From NCBI RefSeq assembly GCF_030389495.1, contig NZ_CP127832.1:1116001-1180000 (forward strand): a DNA stretch of 64,000 nucleotides, read 5' to 3'. How positions within the stretch are numbered: the first letter of the stretch is position 1; each line of letters begins with the position of its first letter. This document shows positions 42,402 through 55,021 of this stretch, in pieces. The translations under genes and the position numbers were made by a program. The stretch comes from Ligilactobacillus cholophilus. Lineage in GTDB: Bacteria; Bacillota; Bacilli; Lactobacillales; Lactobacillaceae. The notes under the pieces were generated by a model that had not been told where the DNA came from, searched no databases, and saw only the letters and a list, made by a program, of their open reading frames with translations.

Positions 42402-45004
42402 TTAACGACGTTTTACTTTTTTTACTAATTCAAGAGCTATTAAAATAATTAATGAAATTCCACTAATTATCATTCCTAATTTTAGCCCTGGAGTTACATA
42501 TGTTAATTCAACATGATGTTTTCCTTTTTTTAAGTTAATAGCAGTCAAATCTCCAAGTGCTTTCTGGAGTTTAATTTGCTTACCATCTACTTTAGCTTTC
42601 CATCCTTTTTCATATGGAATTGATAATGCTAATATTCCCCCATCAAATCCTTTGTTTGTATTAAAATTAATTTTATTTCCATTCACATGAATATTTTTAA
42701 TATTTTTCTTAACAGCTTCTTGCTGAAGTTGTTTAACAGCATTTACATCCTCAACACTAACAAATAATTGATTAGGCTGATTTATCATTTTTGCATTTTT
42801 TATTTCAATCTTAATTTGATCATTTTTATTATATCTTCCTAAATATAGGACCCCATTTTCTCCCCAAGCATTATTACCACCATAAGTCCCTAAATTTTTC
42901 CCATTAACTATAATCGTTAAATCTACTAATTCTTGAGCTTGTAAATGTCCTAAATACAAATATACATTTCCAGTTTTTGACACAATTGTATTATATACAT
43001 AATCATTTTCTTTAATTTCAGGAGTATTTATCGTTAAATTCTTATAATATTCTCGCTTAGTCTTTGATATGCTATTTAATAGTTGATTATAATACTCAAA
43101 CGGATTACTTTCTGGATTATATACATAATTTATATCCGTCGCTTTACGATTAATATTGAAAACTAAAGGAAAAGCACTTTGATTTTCAAAAATCTTTATA
43201 TTGCTTGTCTTTCCAATTTTTTTAATATTTGGAACATCTAATTTTGTATTGGATGTTGGCATTGAATTAATTTTCTGAGTATTATTAAGTAAATTTTTAT
43301 TAGCTTCAAAATAATATTTGATTCCCAATAAGCTATTAATAGCAAAAGTTGAACCATTATTAAATGTATTCCAACGAATCCATGAATGCTTTTGATAATA
43401 TCCTAATGCTGAAATATAATCAGTTAACGATGTTGGTTGTTGTGAAATATACGCTTGTACACCATTATAATTAAATAATAATGGATCATTAGGAGTTATT
43501 TCTGCACTTGATCCCATTCGATAAAAAGTTGAATCTTTATCTTTTACCTTTTTTATTGCTTTATCAAATGAACTTACCGAATATTGATATGCATCCATTG
43601 GTACTTGCGAAAATTCATTTTTTTCAATTTTATAATTATAAGCAAAAATATCAATTACACATACACAACTTAATAAAATATAAATTATTAAATTCTTTTT
43701 AGATATGAATAAGCATAATAAGGTTATTGTAACAAGAACTATCAATTCAAATATTAAAGTTGAAATATCAAAATTATGATAATGATAATTACTAAACATC
43801 ATTACTGCAGCAATTAATATGCTTGCTAAAACAATAAATATTGATTTATTTTTATTTGATAAAATTGCTGCTCCTTGATATGCAAAACAAATAAATACAA
43901 ATGTTATTAAAAACGATTCACGATGAACAAAACCATTAGGCATTGAAAATGCATGCCACATCATATAGAAAAATTTTACATTAGTCGTTAATATTAAAAA
44001 TAAAATATAGACTAATGAAATTAATCTTGACTTTAAACTATATTGGTTACTAAAAAAGTAAAGAATTGTAAATAAAACTACTCCAACCCCACAAAAAATC
44101 AGTGGAGCTTGAGGATCTACATTTCCATTTAATAACGCTGAAAAGAAGGAATGGATATGATAAATTTGTTCAAATGATATTTGAAATTTCTCTTGATTTA
44201 CACTTTCTTGAGCTAGATAACTAGGCAACATTGCAATTGTACCTATACCTACTGAAAAAATCGAATAAATTAGTACTTTTGTTCCTTTTTTTATTGTTTC
44301 ATTTATTCTTTTACTTAAAATTTGCTTGATTACCCATGTTAATGTGGAAATAAATAAAAATATAGTAACTATAATTCCAATATACCAATTTATTAATAAT
44401 AAACATCCTAAAGAAATCCAATACAATAAAGTTTTTCCATTACCATACAGAATTCTATCTAACCCTAATAAAACTATTGGTAATAAAATGATTGCATTGA
44501 CCCACATTGTACATTGTTGGTAATTTGCAAAGAAAGAACTAAAAGCAAAACATGTACCTAAAATTATAGCTATTAAATTTTTATGGTTTATTTTTTCTGA
44601 TTCAAATATTCAGAATTTGTTAAAAATGTATACGTTGTCAATCCAATTAATCCAATGTTAACTAGAAGGTTAATCATAAAAAATATTGGCATATAACTTG
44701 ATGGAATAAATAAAGTTACTATATTTAACGGATTAATCAAATAATATGCTAAAACTGCAAAAAATCCACTTCCTAATCCAATTTGATATGAATATAAAAA
44801 ATTACGAGGATGAAATATATTTTCTTTAAAATATGTCATAAGAGATATATATTGATGTTTCATATCACCTGTAACCACTGTATTATTACCAAATGGATAT
44901 ACATGTGTTAAAAATAAAATGCATATAAATAATAATATAGGGAAAATAAAACTAATAATGTAATTAAGTTTCTTTTGGTTTTTAAATGAATTCATTCCGT
45001 TCAA
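42402..45004 (-). pseudogene. Second YfhO-family membrane protein, frameshifted
   Basis: The N-terminal 138 codons (45004 to 44588) give helix 1, VTGDMKHQYISL and YSYQIGLGSGFFAVLAYY, matching the intact YfhO at 9565-12210, then stop after EYLNQKK. The next frame reads INHKNLIAIILGTCFAFSSF (continuing to YQQCTMWVNAIILLP) on to the normal C-terminus VKKVKRR at 42402. The switch is in an A6 run (44591-44596, minus strand); A7 would join the frames into about 866 residues. It is divergent from the first GT2 gene, so they may once have formed a glycosylation set. Confidence 0.87.
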
Positions 45005-45155: not shown

Positions 45156-46427
45156 ATGGATATTTTTATTAAAATTACGCTATTGATATCTTATATAGGC
45201 ATTATATATTACTCAATTTGGGTAGCAATTTTAGTATGCGGATCAATTAAAGAGTCTCATATTAAAGTTAATAACTTAAAAATTCCTAAGGATATCAAAT
45301 TATTTATCTTAATGCCCATGCTGAATGAAGCTGGGGTTGTAAATTCTACATTATCTCAATTTTTAAAAAACACAGCAAAATTATCACAAGTCCAACTTGG
45401 GGTAATTGATGACGGTTCAATTGATGGAACTGGAAAATTGATTCAAGAATTTATCACTTCACATCACTGTTCAAATAAAATTCATCTTATTCGCAGAATT
45501 TCTCCGAATGCACAAACAGGAAAAGGCGATGCCTTAAATTATGGCTTAAATTTTATTCGAAAACACTTTGATTACAATATGAATCATGTAATTGTCGGCG
45601 TTTTAGATGCTGATGCTATTATGCATCAAAATGATTTTCAAAAAGTATTGATTGAATTTGCTGAAAATCCTGAACTTGCATTGTTACAAATTAAGGTTAG
45701 AATGACCCAAACAAATAATTGGCTACAAAAAATGCAAGATGTTGAATTTGCTACACTTAATGACTGGATTCAACGGATTCGAAATCACATTCACAATGCT
45801 GCTGCATCTGGAAATGGTCAATTCATCAGAATGACCGCTATTAAAAATAATCCTAAGCCATGGGGAAATGCCTTACTTGAAGATTTTGAATTTAGCACTA
45901 AATTTTTATTAAGTGGGAAAAAAACACTCTATTCTTCTGACATTATTGTCTATCAAGAAGCGGTTAATAAAATTAGTCCCTTTATCCGTCAGCGTTCTCG
46001 TTGGGTTCAAGGAGGCTTAGATTGCATTGGAAAATATATAAAAGAAATTTTGATGAGTCATGAACTTAATTTCTGGGCAAAATTTGAAATGGTTTTCTTT
46101 ATGCTGTTACCTTCTATTACTCTATTTGTAGGACTATCTAACCTTTTTGCCTTAATATTCTCTCTTTTTCACTTTAAAATTTTCATTTATTTGTTTATTT
46201 TTTTGATTGGCATTAATTTGCTATTAGCCTTTTATATGGGATCAAAATATTGTGAAGATCCCACAAAAGTTCGTTTTGTAACTGTTTTAGATTGTGTTGG
46301 AATGGTTATTTATAATATCATCTTATTTCCAGCTATTTTAATCGCATTTTATCGTAAATTCACAGGTAAACATAAATGGATTAAAACCTCTCACGGTCAA
46401 GACAAATCAAATATTGCTAAATCATAA
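45156..46427 (+). CDS. Membrane GT2 glycosyltransferase, copy 1
   Basis: 423 residues: one N-terminal helix (about 5-30), a cytosolic GT2 domain and two to three C-terminal helices (about 300-395). Motifs: VIDDGSIDGTG (85-93 region), DADA (151-154) as the metal-binding DxD, EDFE (242-245) and QRSRW (279-283). QxxRW is the mark of processive synthases such as HasA, PgaC and CesA-like enzymes, so a polysaccharide or glycolipid product is expected. The next gene is a close copy. Its SD is TTGGAG. A terminator at 46499-46526 separates the two copies. Confidence 0.85.
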   Translation: MDIFIKITLLISYIGIIYYSIWVAILVCGSIKESHIKVNNLKIPKDIKLFILMPMLNEAGVVNSTLSQFLKNTAKLSQVQLGVIDDGSIDGTGKLIQEFITSHHCSNKIHLIRRISPNAQTGKGDALNYGLNFIRKHFDYNMNHVIVGVLDADAIMHQNDFQKVLIEFAENPELALLQIKVRMTQTNNWLQKMQDVEFATLNDWIQRIRNHIHNAAASGNGQFIRMTAIKNNPKPWGNALLEDFEFSTKFLLSGKKTLYSSDIIVYQEAVNKISPFIRQRSRWVQGGLDCIGKYIKEILMSHELNFWAKFEMVFFMLLPSITLFVGLSNLFALIFSLFHFKIFIYLFIFLIGINLLLAFYMGSKYCEDPTKVRFVTVLDCVGMVIYNIILFPAILIAFYRKFTGKHKWIKTSHGQDKSNIAKS

Positions 46428-46498
46428 ACTAGTCTATTATACTTTTTCACTATCTATCACTATTCACAGTTATAACTAAATTTTATATCTCGTCTTTG

Positions 46499-46526
46499 AA
46501 AAGCTGTAACTTAAGTTCAGCTTTTT
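46499..46526 (+). terminator. Terminator between the two GT2 genes
   Basis: AAGCTG pairs with CAGCTT and AACTT with AAGTT (one bulge), followed by six T on the plus strand. Confidence 0.75.
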
Positions 46527-46573
46527 TATTTCAATAATTTTATTTTAAATTTAAAATAAATTACTCAAATAAT

Positions 46574-46601
46574 TTGCTTAACAAATTATTAGTTTTATAG
46601 T
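46574..46601 (+). promoter_or_regulatory. Promoter of the second GT2 gene
   Basis: TTGCTT (46574-46579), a 16-bp spacer and TATAGT (46596-46601). The following leader matches that of copy 1. Confidence 0.55.
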
Positions 46602-46642
46602 AGAATTTCCTATCGTAGGCGAGATTACTTGGAGTATTTTTC

Positions 46643-47914
46643 ATGAATATTTTTATCAAAATTGTACTTTTGATATCTTTCGTGGGAATTTTATATTATT
46701 CAATCTGGGTTGCTGTCTTAGTATGTGGATCGATTAAAGAGCCACATATTGAATTTGACAGTTCTAAAATTCCACAAGATATTAAATTATTCATCTTAAT
46801 GCCCATGCTGAATGAAGCTGGAGTTGTAGATTCTACTTTATCTCAATTTTTGGCAAATACTCAAGCACTATCTCAAGTCCAACTAGGAGTAATTGATGAT
46901 GGTTCGATAGATGGAACTGGGGATCTAATTGAAGAATTCATCACTTCACATCACTGTGCAAATAAAATTCACCTTATTCGCAGAATCCCTCCCAATGCAC
47001 AAACTGGAAAGGGGGACGCCTTAAACTTTGGATTACAATTTATTCGTAATCAAGTCAATGATGACGTAGAGAATGTCATTGTTGGAGTTTTAGACGCTGA
47101 TGCAATCATGTACGAGGAGGACTTTCAAAAAGTACTTGCGCAATTCGCTGAAAATCCTGAACTTGCACTACTGCAAATCAAAGTAAGAATGATTAAAACA
47201 AAAAACTGGCTTCAAAAAATGCAAGATATTGAATTTGCCACGATCAATGACTGGATTCAACGTATACGGAATCGTATCCATAATGCCGCTGCATCTGGAA
47301 ATGGTCAATTTGTTAGAATGACGGCAATTAAAGACAATCCTACTCCGTGGGGAAATGCTTTGCTTGAAGATTTTGAATTTAGCACCAAATTCTTACTTAG
47401 TGGTAAAAAGACTCTTTATCGTCCTGATATTATTGTTTATCAAGAAGCGGTTAATAAAATCAGTCCTTTCATTCGCCAACGTTCTCGTTGGGTTCAAGGA
47501 GGACTTGATTGTACCGGAAAATACATGAGAGATATTTTCACAAGTCAAGAGCTTGGTTTTTGGGCAAAATTCGAAATGATTTTCTTCATGCTATTGCCAT
47601 TCATAACGATGTTTGTAGGATTATCAAATTTCATCACTCTAATCTTTGCACTTCTCCATATACATATTTTTTTCCATTTGTTTATTTTTTTAATCAGTAT
47701 TAATTTGCTATTAGCCTTTTATATGGGAGTCAAGTACTGTCAAGATCCAACCAAAGTGCGTTTAGCAACATTATTAAATTGTGCTGGAATGATTATTTAT
47801 AACATCATTCTATTTCCAGCTATTTTAATTGCTTTTTATCGTAAAATTACTGGTAAACAAAAATGGATTAAAACAGCTCATGGTCAAGACAATTCAAATA
47901 CTGCTAAATCATAA
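46643..47914 (+). CDS. Membrane GT2 glycosyltransferase, copy 2
   Basis: 423 residues, the same length as copy 1 and alignable without gaps, with the same DxD, EDFE and QRSRW motifs. Differences cluster in the segment after residue 31, around residue 135-145 and in the C-terminal helices. The duplication took the promoter and leader too. Copy 2 is followed after 19 bp by a Cys-rich secreted protein gene on the same transcript, which suggests specialisation of this copy. Divergence is enough that this is not a recent duplication. Confidence 0.86.
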   Translation: MNIFIKIVLLISFVGILYYSIWVAVLVCGSIKEPHIEFDSSKIPQDIKLFILMPMLNEAGVVDSTLSQFLANTQALSQVQLGVIDDGSIDGTGDLIEEFITSHHCANKIHLIRRIPPNAQTGKGDALNFGLQFIRNQVNDDVENVIVGVLDADAIMYEEDFQKVLAQFAENPELALLQIKVRMIKTKNWLQKMQDIEFATINDWIQRIRNRIHNAAASGNGQFVRMTAIKDNPTPWGNALLEDFEFSTKFLLSGKKTLYRPDIIVYQEAVNKISPFIRQRSRWVQGGLDCTGKYMRDIFTSQELGFWAKFEMIFFMLLPFITMFVGLSNFITLIFALLHIHIFFHLFIFLISINLLLAFYMGVKYCQDPTKVRLATLLNCAGMIIYNIILFPAILIAFYRKITGKQKWIKTAHGQDNSNTAKS

Positions 47915-48690: not shown

Positions 48691-48724
48691 AACAAGAACT
48701 TTTTAATATTATTCATATTCAACT
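48691..48724. repeat. Direct repeat of the guaA 3' end (putative attR)
   Basis: 34 bases match 53447-53480 at 32 positions in the same orientation. The copy includes the last codons and stop of guaA and one arm of its terminator. The other arm is missing here, so this is a displaced fragment. The gap 48671-49009 also holds three TTGGCAT repeats and a hairpin (48902-48927); no gene is seen. Confidence 0.65.
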
Positions 48725-48769
48725 ATATAGATTTTTTTAGATATAATAACGACCTAGATTTGAACTTTC

Positions 48770-48866
48770 TTGGCATCATTTTGGCATTTTATTATCTCTA
48801 AATCTTTTTGCCTTGCCTTAACAAGTCTTTATTTATCATACTTTTATCACTTAATATTTTTGGCAT
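48770..48866 (+). repeat. Three TTGGCAT direct repeats, possible integrase arm sites
   Basis: Copies lie at 48770-48776, 48781-48787 and 48860-48866, the last two within similar T-rich contexts. They lie just inside the putative attR in gene-free DNA, where arm-type binding sites of tyrosine integrases are expected. Confidence 0.35.
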
Positions 48867-48901
48867 TATTTTAGAATTTTTAAAACAAAAAATGCAAATA
48901 A

Positions 48902-48927
48902 AAAAGCAAGGTTAATTCCCTGCTTTT
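48902..48927 (-). terminator. Terminator after the AAA ATPase gene
   Basis: AAAAGCA-GG pairs with CC-TGCTTTT with one mismatch, and the minus strand continues in T-rich sequence. Confidence 0.55.
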
Positions 48928-49009
48928 AATAAAATTAACTTACTAATTATTTCAAATACGAAATAATCTTATATCTCTTCGCTGCACAAACCACTCCATA
49001 TTCACTTGC

Positions 49010-50452
49010 TTATTCTTCATTTACTTCGCTCTTTAAATCTTTATAAATTTGCACTAATGACTCAATTGATGATTTTAATTCTTCCTCTGAGTAAGAATTT
49101 CTTTCTTTTACTTCTGGATGATCTTGACAATTACGAATAATATATGGCATAGATCGATCCTCCTCATCTTTCCATTGTCCCCATTTTTTTGGAATATATT
49201 TTTTGGTAGGAAGATTATATTTTCCTACAAATAATTCCTCATCTATTGTAGTAAGCCGATATTTATTAACTTTTTCAGTCCACAATCCATAAATATCAGA
49301 GAATAACCTATGATGAAATTCTACATTAGGTATTTTAAACGCTTTATATGTAATTTCTCCCACTGTTACGTCAGGCAATACCAAATCTTCCATTGATTCA
49401 TAATGAATTTTTTCGCTATCTTTATCTAAAATATATACTTTGCTATTATTCATATTATAATTTTTTAAAATGTATGGTGAATGAGTTGTGATAAATACCT
49501 GACTATTATCGTTACAGGCAAGTTTATTTAAAGATTTAAGTAATTTGTCTTGTGCCCTTGGATGTAAAAATAATTCAGGTTCATCTAAAAAATAAAGTAT
49601 ATTTTCATTGGCTTCATTATCGTCATACTCTGCACTTATTTGAATAAGAGCCAATAAAACTGCACGTTGTAAACCATTACCCTTTTCACTAATATCAGTA
49701 TTTATTCCCTGCTCTTTAACTTGAATATTCCCTTTTTTTAGTAAATCTTTAATTTTTGGAAAGTCAAAATTAATTTTAATTTCAGATTCTCCAAACTGGG
49801 CTTTTACAGTATCAGACAACTTTTGTTCAATTTCAGTTAATTGTTGACCTATTCCCTTTTCCCCAAAAACTTCTTTGTGTTTTTGCTCAAGTTCTTTGAA
49901 CTCATCTGTTTGTTGAAAATCAGCAGTTACTTTTGAAACTAATTTTCCCATTAATTTTGTACTAGAAAAATCTTGTATATCTTCATTATGTCTATTAGCA
50001 TCTATAAACAAACAATCTAACAATGCCGTAATTGTATTAGGTACACCTGTAGGATTCTCATATTCATTTGTTTCCTGATTAAGTACCAACACATTTTGAA
50101 TACTTGTTTTTTTCCCATTAACCTCTAATACTTCTGAGGTCTTTTTTATTATTAGACTATTATCTTCATCACAATTAATATAATTTTCATATTTTTTAGC
50201 TTTTGAAGGAAGAATTGTACAATCACCTAATACTAAAGTCACACTAACATCTTTACTTATATCTTGGATATATTTTTGATATATATATTGATCACGAGAT
50301 ACTTTCTTCGTTAAAAATTTTACTGCATCGAATACTGTAGTTTTCCCAGAATTATTTTCTCCTACAAGATAATTAACACCTTTAGAAAAGGTAAATTCAT
50401 TCGTTCCTTCAAAAATTTTAAAATTTTCTAATATTAATTTTTTAATGTACAT
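49010..50452 (-). CDS. AAA (SMC/OLD-like) ATPase, candidate defence protein
   Basis: 480 residues. Walker A GENNSGKTT (near 31-39), signature-like SEKGNGLQRAVLLAL (near 256), Walker B LYFLDEPELFLHP (near 287) and the H-loop FITTHSPYIL make a complete AAA15/21-type ATPase with a central coiled-coil insert. The last ~90 residues replace the usual TOPRIM nuclease of OLD proteins with a small domain (KKWGQWKDEEDRSMPYIIRN, then DHPEVKERNSYSEEEL) that I have seen associated with phage-defence ATPases such as PtuA-like proteins. No partner nuclease is adjacent. It lies inside the putative guaA island. An AAAGGAGAAA SD precedes the ATG. Confidence 0.75.
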   Translation of the reverse strand: MYIKKLILENFKIFEGTNEFTFSKGVNYLVGENNSGKTTVFDAVKFLTKKVSRDQYIYQKYIQDISKDVSVTLVLGDCTILPSKAKKYENYINCDEDNSLIIKKTSEVLEVNGKKTSIQNVLVLNQETNEYENPTGVPNTITALLDCLFIDANRHNEDIQDFSSTKLMGKLVSKVTADFQQTDEFKELEQKHKEVFGEKGIGQQLTEIEQKLSDTVKAQFGESEIKINFDFPKIKDLLKKGNIQVKEQGINTDISEKGNGLQRAVLLALIQISAEYDDNEANENILYFLDEPELFLHPRAQDKLLKSLNKLACNDNSQVFITTHSPYILKNYNMNNSKVYILDKDSEKIHYESMEDLVLPDVTVGEITYKAFKIPNVEFHHRLFSDIYGLWTEKVNKYRLTTIDEELFVGKYNLPTKKYIPKKWGQWKDEEDRSMPYIIRNCQDHPEVKERNSYSEEELKSSIESLVQIYKDLKSEVNEE

Positions 50453-50470
50453 TTTTTCTCCTTTAACCTA

Positions 50471-50498
50471 AAAAAGCCTTAATAAATTAAGGCTTTTT
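50471..50498 (-). terminator. Terminator after the PgrA-type surface gene
   Basis: AAAAAGCCTTAA pairs with TTAAGGCTTTTT, loop TAAA, with T tract on the minus strand. Confidence 0.87.
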
Positions 50499-50522
50499 AT
50501 TCTTTTATTATTATACCATTTT

Positions 50523-53219
50523 TTATTCGTGACGTTTACGTTTTGCTAAACCTAACATTCCTAAAATACCTGCCATAGCTAATGAGATCTCTCCCCAAAG
50601 TGTTGCCTTTGAGTTATTATCACCCATTTGTGGCAATGTGTTTTCCTTAGCTTCTTGTTTGGCAATGCTTGTTGGTGCTGGTGTTGTAAAGTGAATTACG
50701 TCAGCTTCTTTTACGGTTGCTTCTTCCGCTTGTGCTTCTTTAACTGCACTTACTGTATCAGCGTGAACAGTGTTTGCTTCATCTACTGATGAGCTTTCAC
50801 TATTAACGGCTGGCATTGTTACAGCAGTAGAAGTGTTTTGTTTTGAACTACCAAGCACAACTTCATTACCCATTTCAGCTGTTGTATGTGGATGTTTAAT
50901 CCATTGTACATCTACTGTCGTAATTGTCTTTTCATCATTCTTCAAAATTGTTTCAAGTTCGTTCAACTTGTTTTGTGCATCAATGTATGCTTGTTGTGCC
51001 TTAGCTAATGTATCACTATCAGCGTTCATTTGACTTTGTGCATCATTCAAATCTTTCACTGCGTTGTTATATGCATCTTGTGCTTCTTGCAAAGCCTTGT
51101 CTGCATTAGCGTAGTCATTGCCAGTTTGTTGTAATTGTTTCAACTTAGCTTGATCATTGGCTAATTGTTGTTTCAATTGATTCAACTTATCTACTGAATC
51201 ATTGTAAGTCTTTGTTGCTTGATCAAGTGTTGCTTGCTTATCTGATAGATCTTTGTTGGCGTTATCTAAAGTTGTCTTTGTTGAGTTAACTTTATCTTGT
51301 GCCTTTTGTAAGTAAGCTTGAGGATCACTTAATGCTTCTTGTAAGTCCTTAAGTTTTGCTTGATCTTGTGAAAGTTTTGTTTGATCATTATTCAAAGTAT
51401 TTTGTAATTGACTTAACTTAGCTTGATCATCAGCCAATTTCTTTTGGTCTTGTTCAAGTTTTTGTTGTAATGCTGTTGGAGTATCATTCTTGATTTGTTC
51501 CTTATCAGCATTTACTTGATTTTGTAAGTCTTGAACTGTTTGCTTATCTTGTTCAACTTGTTGTTTTTGTTGTGAAAGTTGATTTTCCAACTCACTCTTT
51601 TGGTTTTGCAAATCACTATCTGATGGAATTGAAACATTTGTTTTGTTCATTGCATCTTTTACAGATTGTTCAACATTATCGTCAGAAAATTCAAAATGGA
51701 CATTACCATATTTATCAATTGATGTTCCAACATACGTTCCACCTGAAAGACCAGCAATAGCTTTAGCATGATTCAAGTTAGGATCAGTATCATTATAGAA
51801 ATCACCAACAATACCCAACAAAATTTGATGTTTAAGATCATTCATTGTGCAATTATTATAGTCAAAAGTATTTGATGCATTTCCAATACATTCGAAGAAT
51901 TCTTTGTCTTGACTTCCACGTGTCCAAGTAATTCCGTAAGGATTGTCATTAAGGTTTTGATTTCCTAATGCATTAGCATCATGACCAGCACCAATGCCAT
52001 TATCCTCCATCTTTTGTGAATTAAAGTTATCTGAATTATAATTCTTAGCAACTTGATCAGCTAAATCAATAATTGCTTCATTGGTCTTAACAGGTGTTGT
52101 ACCAAATTGTTGACGAATACCATTGATGATTTGTGCTGCATAGATATTTAATTCGTTCTTTTGATCTTGAGTTAAGTTACTTGGATCAACATGATAATCA
52201 TCAGATGATGAAGGAACAAATGAATCTTTGAATGCTGGTCCTACATTATCCATGATATTATCAGCAGTATCCCAATCCATTTGTTTCTTTCCTTCAAGAA
52301 CATCAATATAATCTTGAGGTACTTGAGTAGTAGGCACACTTCCACCTTGATTATTGATTTGAGAGTTGACCTTATCTAATTGTTTTTGAGTATCATTAAC
52401 TTTATTTTGGTCATTTTGTTGTGTTTGTTGAGCCTGATTTAACTTAGCTTGGTCTTGGTCAAGTTTTGCTTGGTCATCTTTAACCTTTTGGCTATTATTA
52501 TCGATATTTTGTTTATCTTGATCAACGTTTGCTTGATCTTGTTTAACTTCATTTTGTGTGTTATTGATATTAGTTTGGTCTTGTGAGACTTGATTCTTGT
52601 CATTAGAGATTTGGTGTTGTTGATTATCAATTGCTTGTTGAGCATTATTGACATCACTTTGGGCTTATTGTTGATCTTTTACTGCTTGGTCATAGTTATT
52701 TTGTGCAGTTTGTTGATTTTGTTTGGCTTGATCAACACTTGATTGGGCTTGATTTACAGTATTCTTGTTTTGATCAACGATTTGTTGTTGAGAATTGACT
52801 GCAGACTGATCTTGGTTGATCTTGTCTTGAGTTGCTTGTTGATCTTGCTTATTTTGTTCAATATTGTCAGATGTTGCTTGATTTTTATCACTTTGAGCTT
52901 TATCTAAAGCGTCTTTGGCACTATCAACATTGTTTTGTGCATCATTAACTTTATCCTTGTCAGCATTAACAATACTTTGTGCATGATCCATTTCATTTTT
53001 TGTTTGGTCGACAACTTTTTGTTGGTCTGAAACAGCTTGCTTGTCTTGATTGATTTTATCTTGACTTACTTCTGTTTTAGTTGTTGTCGTAGTGATCTTT
53101 GTTTGATCACCAATTTCTTCTTTAGTTACGGTTACAGTATCCGCATGTACGTTACTTGCCATTCCAGTTGCTACTGTTGCAGCACCTAAGGCAATTGCTG
53201 TTAAAGCTTTTTTCTTCAT
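50523..53219 (-). pseudogene. PgrA/SEC10-type coiled-coil surface protein, interrupted by one stop codon
   Basis: A single frame of 899 codons is open apart from TAA at 52665-52667. Upstream ends ...NYDQAVKDQQ and downstream goes on AQSDVNNAQQ in phase; CAA-to-TAA (Gln) is the likely event. Order: signal peptide to SNVHADT; a Gln/Asp/Lys heptad coiled coil (about 50-295); a globular PgrA/SEC10 surface-exclusion-like domain (YAAQIINGIRQQFG, GAGHDANALG, YGITWTRGSQ); a second long coiled coil; and the sorting signal LPQMGD, helix and KRKRHE. The sortase motif has Met where Thr is expected. With the stop, only a 184-residue secreted fragment is made. Its promoter carries a G9 tract. Confidence 0.87.
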
Positions 53220-53277
53220 TTTTCACCTAACTCCTTTAGTAAATCCTAAAATATAAATATTTAAGTTTACAAGGTTG

Positions 53278-53308
53278 ATTTTACCCCCCCCCACTAAAAT
53301 TTTGTCAA
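53278..53308 (-). promoter_or_regulatory. Promoter with a G9 tract in the spacer, probable phase-variable switch
   Basis: On the minus strand the consensus -35 TTGACA (53303-53308) is followed by 10 bases, then nine G (53284-53292), then the -10 TAAAAT (53278-53283). The spacer is now 19 bp; loss of two G would give the optimal 17. An SD (AAAGGAG) and the surface-protein ATG lie about 60 bp downstream. Mononucleotide tracts in this position switch surface genes on and off in other bacteria. Confidence 0.75.
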
Positions 53309-53426
53309 TTTTCTTTAGCTAAATAATGTCCTAGATTTAACAAATCATAATCATTTTTCCCATTTTGAAACCAAAAAGATACACATTTAAATTATTTGTT
53401 GCATTTATTTAAATCAATTTAATAAA

Positions 53427-53458
53427 AAAGTTCTTGTTGGCTTTCCAACAAGAACTTT
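53427..53458 (-). terminator. guaA terminator
   Basis: AAAGTTCTTGTTGG (53427-53440) pairs with CCAACAAGAACTTT (53445-53458), followed by TTTATT on the minus strand. Its right arm is part of the 34-bp direct repeat. Confidence 0.88.
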
Positions 53459-53480
53459 CTAATATTATTCATATTCAATT
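53447..53480. repeat. Direct repeat at the guaA 3' end (putative attL)
   Basis: Copy of 48691-48724 with two mismatches. It covers the last codons of guaA, its stop and one terminator arm. The 3' end of guaA is a known integration site for genomic islands. Confidence 0.65.
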
Positions 53481-55021
53481 GTTGCAGGTGGCTTAGAAGT
53501 AATATCATACATTACACGGTTAACATGTTGAACTTCATTAACGATTCGTACTGAGATTTTTTGTAAAATATCCCATGGAATTTTTGCAAAGTCCGCAGTC
53601 ATTCCATCAATTGAAGTTACGGCACGAATTGCAACTGCATAATCATATGTTCGTCCATCACCCATTACACCAACAGAACGAATTCCAGGTAAAGCTACAA
53701 AGTATTGCCAAATTTCCTTGTCTAAACCGGCATTAGCAATTTCTTCACGCAAAATTGCATCTGCATCACGGACAATTTGTAATTTTTCTTCAGTTACTTC
53801 ACCAATTACACGAATTGCCAAACCTGGGCCTGGGAATGGTTGACGCCATACTAAATTATGAGGCATTCCTAATTTTTCGCCTAATTCACGAACTTCATCT
53901 TTAAATAATGTACGTAATGGTTCGATTAATTCAAAATCCATGTCTTCTGGAAGTCCGCCAACATTATGGTGAGACTTAATTGTTTGTGCTGTATCCGTTC
54001 CTGATTCAATCACATCCGTATAAAGCGTTCCTTGAGCTAAAAACTTAATTCCATCTAACTTCTTAGCTTCATCATTAAAGACTTGAATAAATTCATTTCC
54101 GATAATCTTCCGTTTCTTTTCAGGATCTGAAACGCCCTTTAACTTATCCAAGAAACGTTGTTGTGCATCAACTTTAATGATATTCAAGCCGAACTTACCA
54201 GCTAGACTATCCATTACTTGTTGTGCTTCATTTTTCCGCAATAAACCATGATCAACAAAAATACTTGTTAATTGATTACCAATTGCCTTATGTAACAATA
54301 CACCTACAACTGATGAATCAACCCCACCAGATAAAGCTAAAAGCACTTTCTTATCGCCAACAGTTTCACGAATCTTCTTGACTTGCATGTCAATGAAATC
54401 GTCCATTGTCCAATTATCTTTTGCTTGGCAAACATCAAATGCAAATCTTCTTAAAATATCATTACCATATTCTGTATTACGCACTTCTGGGTGGAATTGT
54501 AATCCATAAAATTTCTTTTCATCATTTGCAATTGCTGAAATAGGACAGTTTTGACTTGTAGCCACAACTTTAAATCCATCCGGTGCTTGAGTTACTAAAT
54601 CACCATGACTCATCCAAACTGTTTGTTCTGTTGGTAAACCTTTAAACATAACTGCATTATCATCAGTCACCTTAATATCTGCTTTACCATATTCTTTATT
54701 ATCAGCAGTTTCTACTTTTCCCCCAGGAAGAGTGTGTGCCATTAATTGCATCCCATAGCAAATTCCTAAAACAGGAATTCCTAAATTAAAGATTTCAGGA
54801 TCGACCTTAAAAGCACCATCATCATATACACTATTAGGTCCACCAGAAAAGATAATTCCCTTAGGGGCGATTTGCTTGATTTCTTCAGCCGTGATTTTAT
54901 GTGATAAGAGTTCTGAATACACACCAAATTCACGAATACGTCGTGTAATCAATTGATTATATTGACTACCAAAATCAAGCACGATAATCTTATCGAAATT
55001 TTGCATTTCATCCTTTACCAT
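53465..55021 (-). CDS. guaA: GMP synthase (glutamine-hydrolysing)
   Basis: 518 residues from the ATG at 55019-55021 (GAGGTG SD); the upstream frame to 55081 lacks an SD. The amidotransferase half has GICYGMQLM (Cys) and LQFHPEV (His-x-Glu), the ATP-PPase half [12 protein letters not shown], and the dimer domain ends KPPATIEYE. It converts XMP to GMP. Length and motifs are complete, so the putative insertion at its 3' end left the coding sequence whole. Confidence 0.96.

What the first reader, a model, noticed from the sequence alone, without database searches (positions are those of the whole stretch)
53278..53308. Poly-G tract between -35 and -10 of a surface protein gene: slipped-strand promoter switch
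On the minus strand a consensus TTGACA and a TAAAAT are separated by 10 bases plus nine G, a 19-bp spacer. One or two G fewer would give 18 or 17 bp, so tract length should set transcription. In an AT-rich genome a G9 run is striking, and it sits exactly where Neisseria and other pathogens place such switches; I know of few examples in lactobacilli. The gene encodes a large coiled-coil wall protein, the usual type of phase-variable target.
Basis: partly seen in the sequence, partly recalled or inferred. Interest (0 to 1): 0.85.

Follow-up and report, generated by a model that had tools for sequence, protein, structure and literature searches.

The report
Poly-G promoter switch, lactobacillus surface gene
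In a bacterium that appears to be a lactobacillus, a run of nine Gs sits inside the promoter of a cell-wall protein gene, and the same arrangement with runs of different length stands before surface-protein genes in relatives, so these bacteria probably vary their surface by copying slips; in this genome the protein itself is cut short by a stop codon.

Summary
On the minus strand TTGACA, 10 bases, G9 and TAAAAT lie at 53308-53278, and G9 is the only run of 8 or more G/C in the 1.59-Mb genome. The promoter-switch reading is partly supported. The same layout precedes wall-protein genes in at least four of 26 own-genus genomes, with a fifth cut at the tract by a contig edge. It occurs at 17 sites in 11 of 75 genomes of a second genus, 13 of them before signal-peptide ORFs. 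Orthologous promoters differ in tract length: one pair shares 375 of 375 other bases and differs only as G8 versus G9; another reads G8 versus G11. None of 25 distinct sites has a 17-bp spacer: either these clones are off-optimum or the G-run shifts the optimum. No reads, transcripts or within-strain variation could be examined. New member of a known kind (porA/fetA/opc type).

The parts
53303..53308 (-). -35 hexamer TTGACA
   Evidence: sequence; invariant in the 9 aligned sites, which were chosen by a pattern that demands it; other sites have TTGACT, TTGACG, TTGATT or TTGAAA
53284..53292 (-). G9 tract filling the -10-proximal part of the spacer (10 nt + 9 G = 19 bp)
   Evidence: orthologous and analogous tracts of 7-11 G
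53278..53283 (-). -10 hexamer TAAAAT, directly abutting the tract
   Evidence: sequence; same position in related sites
53268..53273 (-). CTTGTA block 4 nt after the -10; the same or a similar block lies 3-5 nt after the -10 in several related promoters with and without poly-G
   Evidence: read by eye; variants include CTTGAA (G012) and CCTGTA (L046); the spacing pattern alone is not rare in the window (3 found, mean 1.07 expected)
52665..53219 (-). 5' part of the surface-protein ORF: signal peptide and coiled coil (by eye), ends at an in-frame TAA at codon 185
50523..52664 (-). remainder of the same reading frame: SEC10/PgrA domain (TIGR04320) and C-terminal LPQMG anchor-like end
   Evidence: 180.2 bits against a cut-off of 70 for 50523-52337; frame continuity
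49010..50452 (-). OLD-family AAA ATPase, cargo of the same segment
   Evidence: PADLOC Old 194.6 bits
48691..48722 (.). left 32-bp direct repeat (copy of the guaA 3' end)
   Evidence: empty site in L022
53447..53478 (.). right 32-bp direct repeat, overlapping the 3' end of guaA
53465..55081 (-). guaA, upstream neighbour; a hairpin-plus-T-run (terminator-like) sequence follows it before the promoter
   Evidence: ORF; identified by guaA matches; hairpin read by eye, the terminator scan of 53150-53520 did not report it

Best explanation
The site is a promoter-spacer homopolymer switch. [quoted passage not shown] That changes the distance and angle between the two boxes and so how well RNA polymerase starts the wall-protein gene, giving cell-to-cell differences in a surface protein. 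It belongs to a recurring set of such promoters in this bacterial family, before PgrA-type, YSIRK, SH3-type and other wall or secreted proteins. Shown: the layout, its recurrence, and tract-length differences between orthologous promoters of relatives. Inferred: that slippage occurs within a strain, that length sets transcription, and which lengths are on. In this genome the target ORF carries a stop at codon 185, so the switch now drives at most a short secreted fragment; it sits on a guaA-3'-end island that the one other genome of the species held lacks.
For: Exact layout; only G8+ run in the genome. Recurrence: 13 places in 10 of 397 family genomes against 2 control matches. A sequence-only model finds 17 sites at E<1e-5 in 11 of 75 genomes of genus g37, 10 of them not used to build it; 13 of the 17 precede an ORF with a signal peptide judged by eye, one of these at 295 nt and itself frame-broken. 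Own genus: 3 of 26 genomes by pattern with 0 control matches, plus G007 (G11) and a PgrA gene in G016 whose contig begins inside a G8 tract. Length variation in orthologs: G061 G8 / G437 G9 with 0 substitutions in 375 aligned bases, and 1 mismatch plus 1 gap in 3,085 bp; G210 G7 / G271 G8; G190 G9 / G093 G8; G145 and G447 G8 / G061 G9; own genus G006 G8 / G007 G11. Named collection (truncated scan): 87 of 122 sites lie outside long ORFs and 15-200 nt before an ORF, against 6.5% of random points in the same loci; 61 of the 87 ORFs look secreted by a crude rule.
Against: No within-strain data. Orthologs of one group (G061/G447 'orphan', no ORF found) both have G8. In the G210/G271 pair the flanks also carry other 1-nt indels, so the tract is not uniquely variable there. 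G271 keeps an interrupted GGGAGGGG tract of the same total spacer, compatible with a fixed-spacing role. Homopolymer lengths are error-prone in assemblies, and G437 is a 60-contig draft. PgrA-type genes mostly have no tract in what I could read: 2 of 20 upstream regions in the own genus have one (contig-edge L083, interrupted and 5'-open loci left out) and 6 of 29 among the 30 best loci returned for g37 (one of the six is the interrupted tract, two of the 29 have doubtful starts). PgrA relatives that look closest by N-terminal sequence, G005 and G007 (L090, L089), have ordinary promoters. The window's ORF is broken. In the phylum-wide sample only 4 of 398 genomes matched, the own one included. 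G009 of the same species has no such site.
Confidence: 0.7

Rival explanations
1. Fixed structural spacer: the G-run is conserved because stiff, A-form-like G-tract DNA tunes a spacer of about 19 bp (making it act like 17-18 bp or giving supercoiling response), and length changes are rare by-products rather than a switch.
For: Spacers cluster at 19 in the fetched family sites (11 of 25 distinct) and in the named sample (52 of 122 at 19; uniform over 17-20 rejected, p 1.4e-5), although that pattern allowed only 17-20. G271 keeps an interrupted tract of the same length.
Against: Orthologs differ by 1 to 3 G, including G8 against G11; four weaker sites have 15-16 bp; tract-bearing promoters mostly precede surface genes, and most readable PgrA promoters do without a tract. 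The A-form argument is recalled, not tested.
Confidence: 0.17
2. Neutral relic (not exclusive of the main reading): the tract once switched the gene, but the gene is now dead (stop at codon 185) on a decaying island; the G9 in this genome has no present role.
For: In-frame stop; segment absent from the only other genome of the species held; no integrase-like ORF of 80 aa or more is listed within it.
Against: The rest of the 898-codon frame is open and the promoter layout is intact; the tract is not interrupted as in G271. One genome cannot tell a recent stop from a sequencing error.
Confidence: 0.3
3. The tract is a binding site of a regulator or a G-rich structure, not a length-dependent spacer.
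For: Flanking positions also show conservation (CTTGTA-like block after the -10); the site selection itself is biased towards G-runs.
Against: L. salivarius plasmid PgrA promoters (L045, L046) have a similar -10 and a CTTGTA or CCTGTA block with a 17-bp spacer and no tract, so the tract is dispensable for the promoter type; a single G-run cannot form an intramolecular quadruplex (general knowledge).
Confidence: 0.08
4. Chance or assembly artefact: a random G9 next to chance hexamers.
For: G9 expectation of 0.06-0.74 positions per genome; TTGACA-19-TANNNT is expected about twice in the window.
Against: Recurrence of the full layout before surface genes in other genomes, with control patterns at 2 and 0 matches, and model hits not used in building it.
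Confidence: 0.04

Closest known systems
porA / fetA / opc of Neisseria meningitidis (homopolymer between -10 and -35; passages of PMC2791445 seen)
   Same: unstable homopolymeric run inside the promoter spacer of a surface-protein gene; length thought to alter sigma-factor binding
   Different: those rest on experiments in a Gram-negative pathogen; here a Gram-positive lactobacillus-type bacterium, comparative evidence only, spacers mostly 18-21 bp
HPT_37 upstream of PPA1943 in Cutibacterium (Propionibacterium) acnes (passages of PMC4746626 seen)
   Same: Gram-positive commensal; C tract placed by those authors between -10 and -35, length differs between two strains with different expression
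   Different: 5 and 7 C, shorter; different gene; transcript data exist there, none here
Bifidobacterium breve pilus G-tract switch (passages of PMC9187656 seen)
   Same: gut commensal, G-tract slippage, sortase-dependent surface structure
   Different: the tract separates two ORFs of the pilin gene and switches reading frame, not the promoter
Spy1336/R28 homopolymeric tract of Streptococcus pyogenes (passages of PMC7098570 seen)
   Same: tract upstream of an LPXTG surface protein; single-base indels change transcript level
   Different: T tract, suggested by those authors to affect a regulator's binding sites, not the core spacer
Gardnerella homopolymer tracts (passages of PMC11287997 seen)
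   Same: many tracts of 8 bp or more upstream of ORFs in a Gram-positive bacterium, surface proteins among the targets
   Different: position relative to -35/-10 not given in the passages I saw; other phylum

Membership tests
Promoter-spacer homopolymer phase variation (porA/fetA/opc type) | homopolymeric tract of about 8 or more between -35 and -10 | tested here: met
   G9 in a 19-bp spacer
Promoter-spacer homopolymer phase variation (porA/fetA/opc type) | tract length differs between otherwise near-identical DNA | tested here: inconclusive
   met for a related locus (375 of 375 other bases identical, G8 against G9); own-genus orthologs G8 against G11 but with diverged flanks; not testable for the window locus because the second genome of the species lacks the segment
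Promoter-spacer homopolymer phase variation (porA/fetA/opc type) | tract length sets transcription | not testable with these tools
   no transcript data
Promoter-spacer homopolymer phase variation (porA/fetA/opc type) | reversible, high-frequency switching within a clone | not testable with these tools
   no reads or colonies
Promoter-spacer homopolymer phase variation (porA/fetA/opc type) | target is a surface-exposed product | tested here: inconclusive
   signal peptide and LPQMG-like end by eye, PgrA domain 180.2 bits, but the ORF is interrupted at codon 185; open surface-type ORFs follow the tract in relatives
TIGR04320 SEC10/PgrA surface exclusion domain proteins | domain score above the curated cut-off of 70 bits | tested here: met
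   180.2 bits
TIGR04320 SEC10/PgrA surface exclusion domain proteins | cell-wall anchor (Pfam Gram_pos_anchor) | tested here: inconclusive
   LPQMG plus hydrophobic and charged tail by eye, but PF00746 not reported at E<=0.01
TIGR04320 SEC10/PgrA surface exclusion domain proteins | surface exclusion function in conjugation | not tested
   no assay possible; no conjugation genes looked for
guaA-3'-end integrative island | direct repeats containing the guaA 3' end, with an empty site in a relative | tested here: met
   32-bp repeats, 31 of 32 identical, single copy in G009; guaA 3' end reported as a target of streptococcal ICEs with direct repeats (passages of PMC4701971)
guaA-3'-end integrative island | site-specific integrase in the element | tested here: not met
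   ORFs of 80 aa or more within 48691-53446 are only the two pieces of the surface frame, the ATPase and an 87-aa ORF overlapping the surface frame; so described only as a repeat-flanked island remnant

The most novel reading that the evidence does not exclude
Lactobacilli carry an unrecorded phasome: a standard switchable promoter, TTGACA, 10-11 nt, G7-11, TAAAAT or TAAACT, CTTGTA, placed before PgrA-type, YSIRK and other wall proteins, and with a different spacing before an LCP (LytR-CpsA-Psr-like) gene. The absence of any 17-bp spacer among 25 sites would mean either that sequenced clones sit in the off states or that the G-run shifts the spacer optimum to about 19 bp; in both cases commensal and food lactobacilli would vary their surface at random as mucosal pathogens do.
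Probability: 0.55. Interest if true: 0.75.

Novelty: new member of a known kind. Interest (0 to 1): 0.6.

Why it matters
Surface proteins decide how lactobacilli adhere and meet the immune system, and differences between strains or batches of probiotics are often unexplained (general knowledge). A G-run whose length changes on copying, inside the promoters of such genes in two genera, would be a simple cause, testable by counting Gs in existing read sets. It would also extend promoter-spacer phase variation, best known from mucosal pathogens, to a large commensal and food family, and the missing 17-bp class raises a physical question about how G-tract DNA sets promoter spacing.

Tried and rejected
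Rejected: that the G9 is remarkable by its mere existence (Markov expectation up to 0.74). Left open: that one or two Gs fewer must be the ON state. The levansucrase-type gene (name by eye) downstream of guaA in G006, and a like match in G007, share only signal-peptide DNA with the window gene. Plasmid searches with the promoter regions of the window and of L290 found nothing, so no named strains with a variable tract were found there. Of the five L. salivarius plasmid PgrA matches (26-29% identical) I fetched three: L045 has TTGACA-17-TACACT and CTTGTA, L046 TTGATA-17-TACACT and CCTGTA (read upstream of the L045-equivalent start, not of the annotated one), L044 shows no such promoter in the stretch read. 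The protein scan of genome contigs found no relative. The phylum-wide pattern search gave only 4 of 398 genomes. G-runs in coding sequence, before murC-like and before LCP-like genes were set apart and not counted as spacer sites of the main type. Four weaker family sites with G7 and 15-16-bp spacers (L030, L058, L075, L076) were missing from my first table and are counted; the first scan for that recount had a faulty regular expression and was redone. The last run (G016 contig edge) crashed the script and was read by hand. The G8+ survey covered 19 genomes, 17 of them picked because of hits or own-genus membership, so its proportions are not unbiased, and own-genus genomes outside it may hold sites that the pattern misses. 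Genus and species names of the G handles are not given by the tools; 'lactobacillus' rests on the L. salivarius plasmid relatives, the guaA match to Latilactobacillus (72%) and gene content, and I could not name the species.

Full report
OBSERVATION. The minus strand reads TTGACA (53308-53303), AAATTTTAGT, nine G (53292-53284), TAAAAT (53283-53278), and an ATG at 53219. The run is the only one of 8 or more G/C in the 1,587,935-base genome; in the window the next is a single G6. Markov models from the window expect 0.06-0.74 G9 positions per genome, and three TTGACA-19-TANNNT arrangements occur in the window where 1.94 are expected. The ingredients taken singly are therefore not improbable; their combination and recurrence are what count.

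THE GENE. The frame from 53219 to 50523 has 898 codons. It begins with a signal peptide and is largely coiled coil (both by eye), contains a SEC10/PgrA domain (TIGR04320, 180.2 bits against a cut-off of 70) and ends in LPQMG with a hydrophobic, charged tail. It has one internal stop, at codon 185. A second start at 52337 (GTG) gives a 604-residue ORF without a signal peptide.

THE SEGMENT. The gene and an OLD-family ATPase (49010-50452; PADLOC Old 194.6 bits) lie on a segment of 4,756 bp bounded by two 32-bp direct repeats, 48691-48722 and 53447-53478, 31 of 32 identical. The right copy overlaps the 3' end of guaA. The only other genome of the species held, G009, has a single copy and joins the two flanks directly. 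The 3' end of guaA is a known target of integrating elements in streptococci, with direct repeats made of the gene end (passages of PMC4701971). No integrase-like ORF of 80 aa or more is listed in the segment, so I call it an island remnant.

RECURRENCE IN RELATIVES. The pattern TTGACA-N4-13-G7+-N0-5-TANNNT matched 10 of 397 family genomes at 13 distinct places (15 matches); the reversed control pattern matched twice. Of the 13, one (G113) lies in a 423-codon stop-free frame, one (G311) overlaps the start of an ABC-transporter-like ORF, and one (G315) lies just before a glycosyltransferase-like ORF that looks broken at the tract; most of the other ten precede ORFs for secreted or membrane proteins (by eye). 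A sequence-only model from nine sites was run over 75 genomes of genus g37: 23 genomes at E<=0.05, and 17 sites in 11 genomes at E<1e-5, of which 7 had built the model and 10 are new. Thirteen of the 17 precede an ORF whose start looks like a signal peptide by eye: PgrA-type, SH3-type, YSIRK and others. Two have no ORF found (G061 and G447, the same promoter) and two precede other membrane proteins (G339, G424). In the own genus a looser pattern hit 3 of 26 genomes (G000, G006, G012) with no control match. G007 has an 11-G tract with a 21-bp spacer before a wall-anchored protein. In G016 a contig begins inside a G8 tract about 40 bases before a PgrA gene. In G093 a stretch of N starts right after a G8 in such a promoter; this may be a scaffold gap or a masked stretch. 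Neither proves anything about variability.

LENGTH VARIATION. Orthologous promoters were aligned. G061 against G437: 375 aligned bases, no substitution, one difference, G8 against G9; over 3,085 bp BLAST counts 1 mismatch and 1 gap. G210 G7 against G271 G8, with other 1-nt indels nearby. G190 G9 against G093 G8. G145 and G447 G8 against G061 G9. G061 and G447 at another locus both G8. In G271 one tract reads GGGAGGGG, and its gene is shorter (622 against about 1,000 residues). In the own genus G006 has G8 and G007 G11 before orthologous FPQTG-ending proteins. These are different species or drafts, and homopolymer lengths can be misread, so this is evidence for slippage over short evolutionary times, not for switching in a culture.

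MECHANISM. Slippage in the run changes the -35/-10 distance; that altered spacing affects sigma-factor binding is the accepted reading of porA, fetA and opc in the meningococcus (passages of PMC2791445). Which length is ON is open. A recount over the 231 family loci fetched (loci overlap and were chosen by earlier searches) gives 25 distinct sites with the tract abutting the -10 or one base from it: spacers 15 (3), 16 (1), 18 (3), 19 (11), 20 (6), 21 (1), none 17. The four short ones have G7 and are weak model matches or pattern hits. In a truncated all-bacteria sample of 122 sites, where the pattern allowed only 17-20, the counts are 21, 33, 52 and 16 (p 1.4e-5 against uniform). The promoter type does not need the tract: two L. 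salivarius plasmid PgrA promoters have a 17-bp spacer, TACACT and a CTTGTA or CCTGTA block with no G-run, and most PgrA upstream regions that I could read lack it (2 of 20 with a tract in the own genus; 6 of 29 among the best loci of g37).

BREADTH. The same layout occurs widely. Of the 122 sites 87 lie outside long ORFs and 15-200 nt before an ORF of 80 or more residues, against 293 of 4,520 random points (6.5%), and 61 of the 87 look secreted by a crude rule. In an even phylum sample only 4 of 398 genomes matched, so the feature is scattered, not general.

NOVELTY. The kind is known. I found no paper on such a promoter tract in lactobacilli in searches (listings; passages of a few papers), which cover only the open PMC library. 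I rate it a new member of a known kind, made more interesting by its recurrence in two genera and by the missing 17-bp class.

WHAT THIS MEANS FOR THE FINDING. Observation confirmed; switch probable as a class; function at this very locus doubtful because of the stop codon; ON length unknown.

Noticed in passing
window 48691-53478: A 4.76-kb segment with the surface gene and an OLD-family ATPase is bounded by 32-bp direct repeats of the guaA 3' end; G009 of the same species has the empty site.
   Followed up: yes
window 42402-45004: A YfhO-like membrane protein gene (name recalled, not searched) is split in this genome and intact (867 aa) in G009; the difference at the break is one A in an A-run, so here too a homopolymer length change alters a gene.
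   Followed up: partly
window 45156-47914: Two tandem, very similar 423-aa glycosyltransferase-type genes; G009 has a single copy that begins like the first and ends like the second, as if the pair had collapsed by recombination.
   Followed up: no
L264 (G190:C1:1496500-1500100): A YSIRK-type gene has both a G9 promoter tract and a G10 run in its coding sequence where the reading frame breaks: possible double switch.
   Followed up: partly
L037 (G315:C113): A G8 run lies where a glycosyltransferase-like reading frame appears to break: coding-tract switch or sequencing error.
   Followed up: no
L257, L260, L286, L291, L302 (G145, G190, G437, G061, G093): A G8/G9 run about 170 nt before an LCP (LytR-CpsA-Psr-like, by eye) gene sits between a TTGATT/TTGACT-like -35 and a TATACT/TACACT-like -10 with different spacing; length differs between species.
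   Followed up: partly
L261, L272, L285, L293, L299: G8-G10 run with conserved flanks about 300 nt before a murC-like gene (by eye) in five genomes, length varying; nature unknown.
   Followed up: no
L312 (G012:C48) and L309 (G016:C13): Two more PgrA genes of the own genus with poly-G promoters, one with G7 and an 18-bp spacer, one cut by a contig edge within the tract.
   Followed up: yes
L187, L184, L225 and others: The same spacer layout stands before secreted or wall-type proteins in named Streptococcus records and many MAGs; spacer mode 19 bp within the 17-20 allowed by the pattern.
   Followed up: partly
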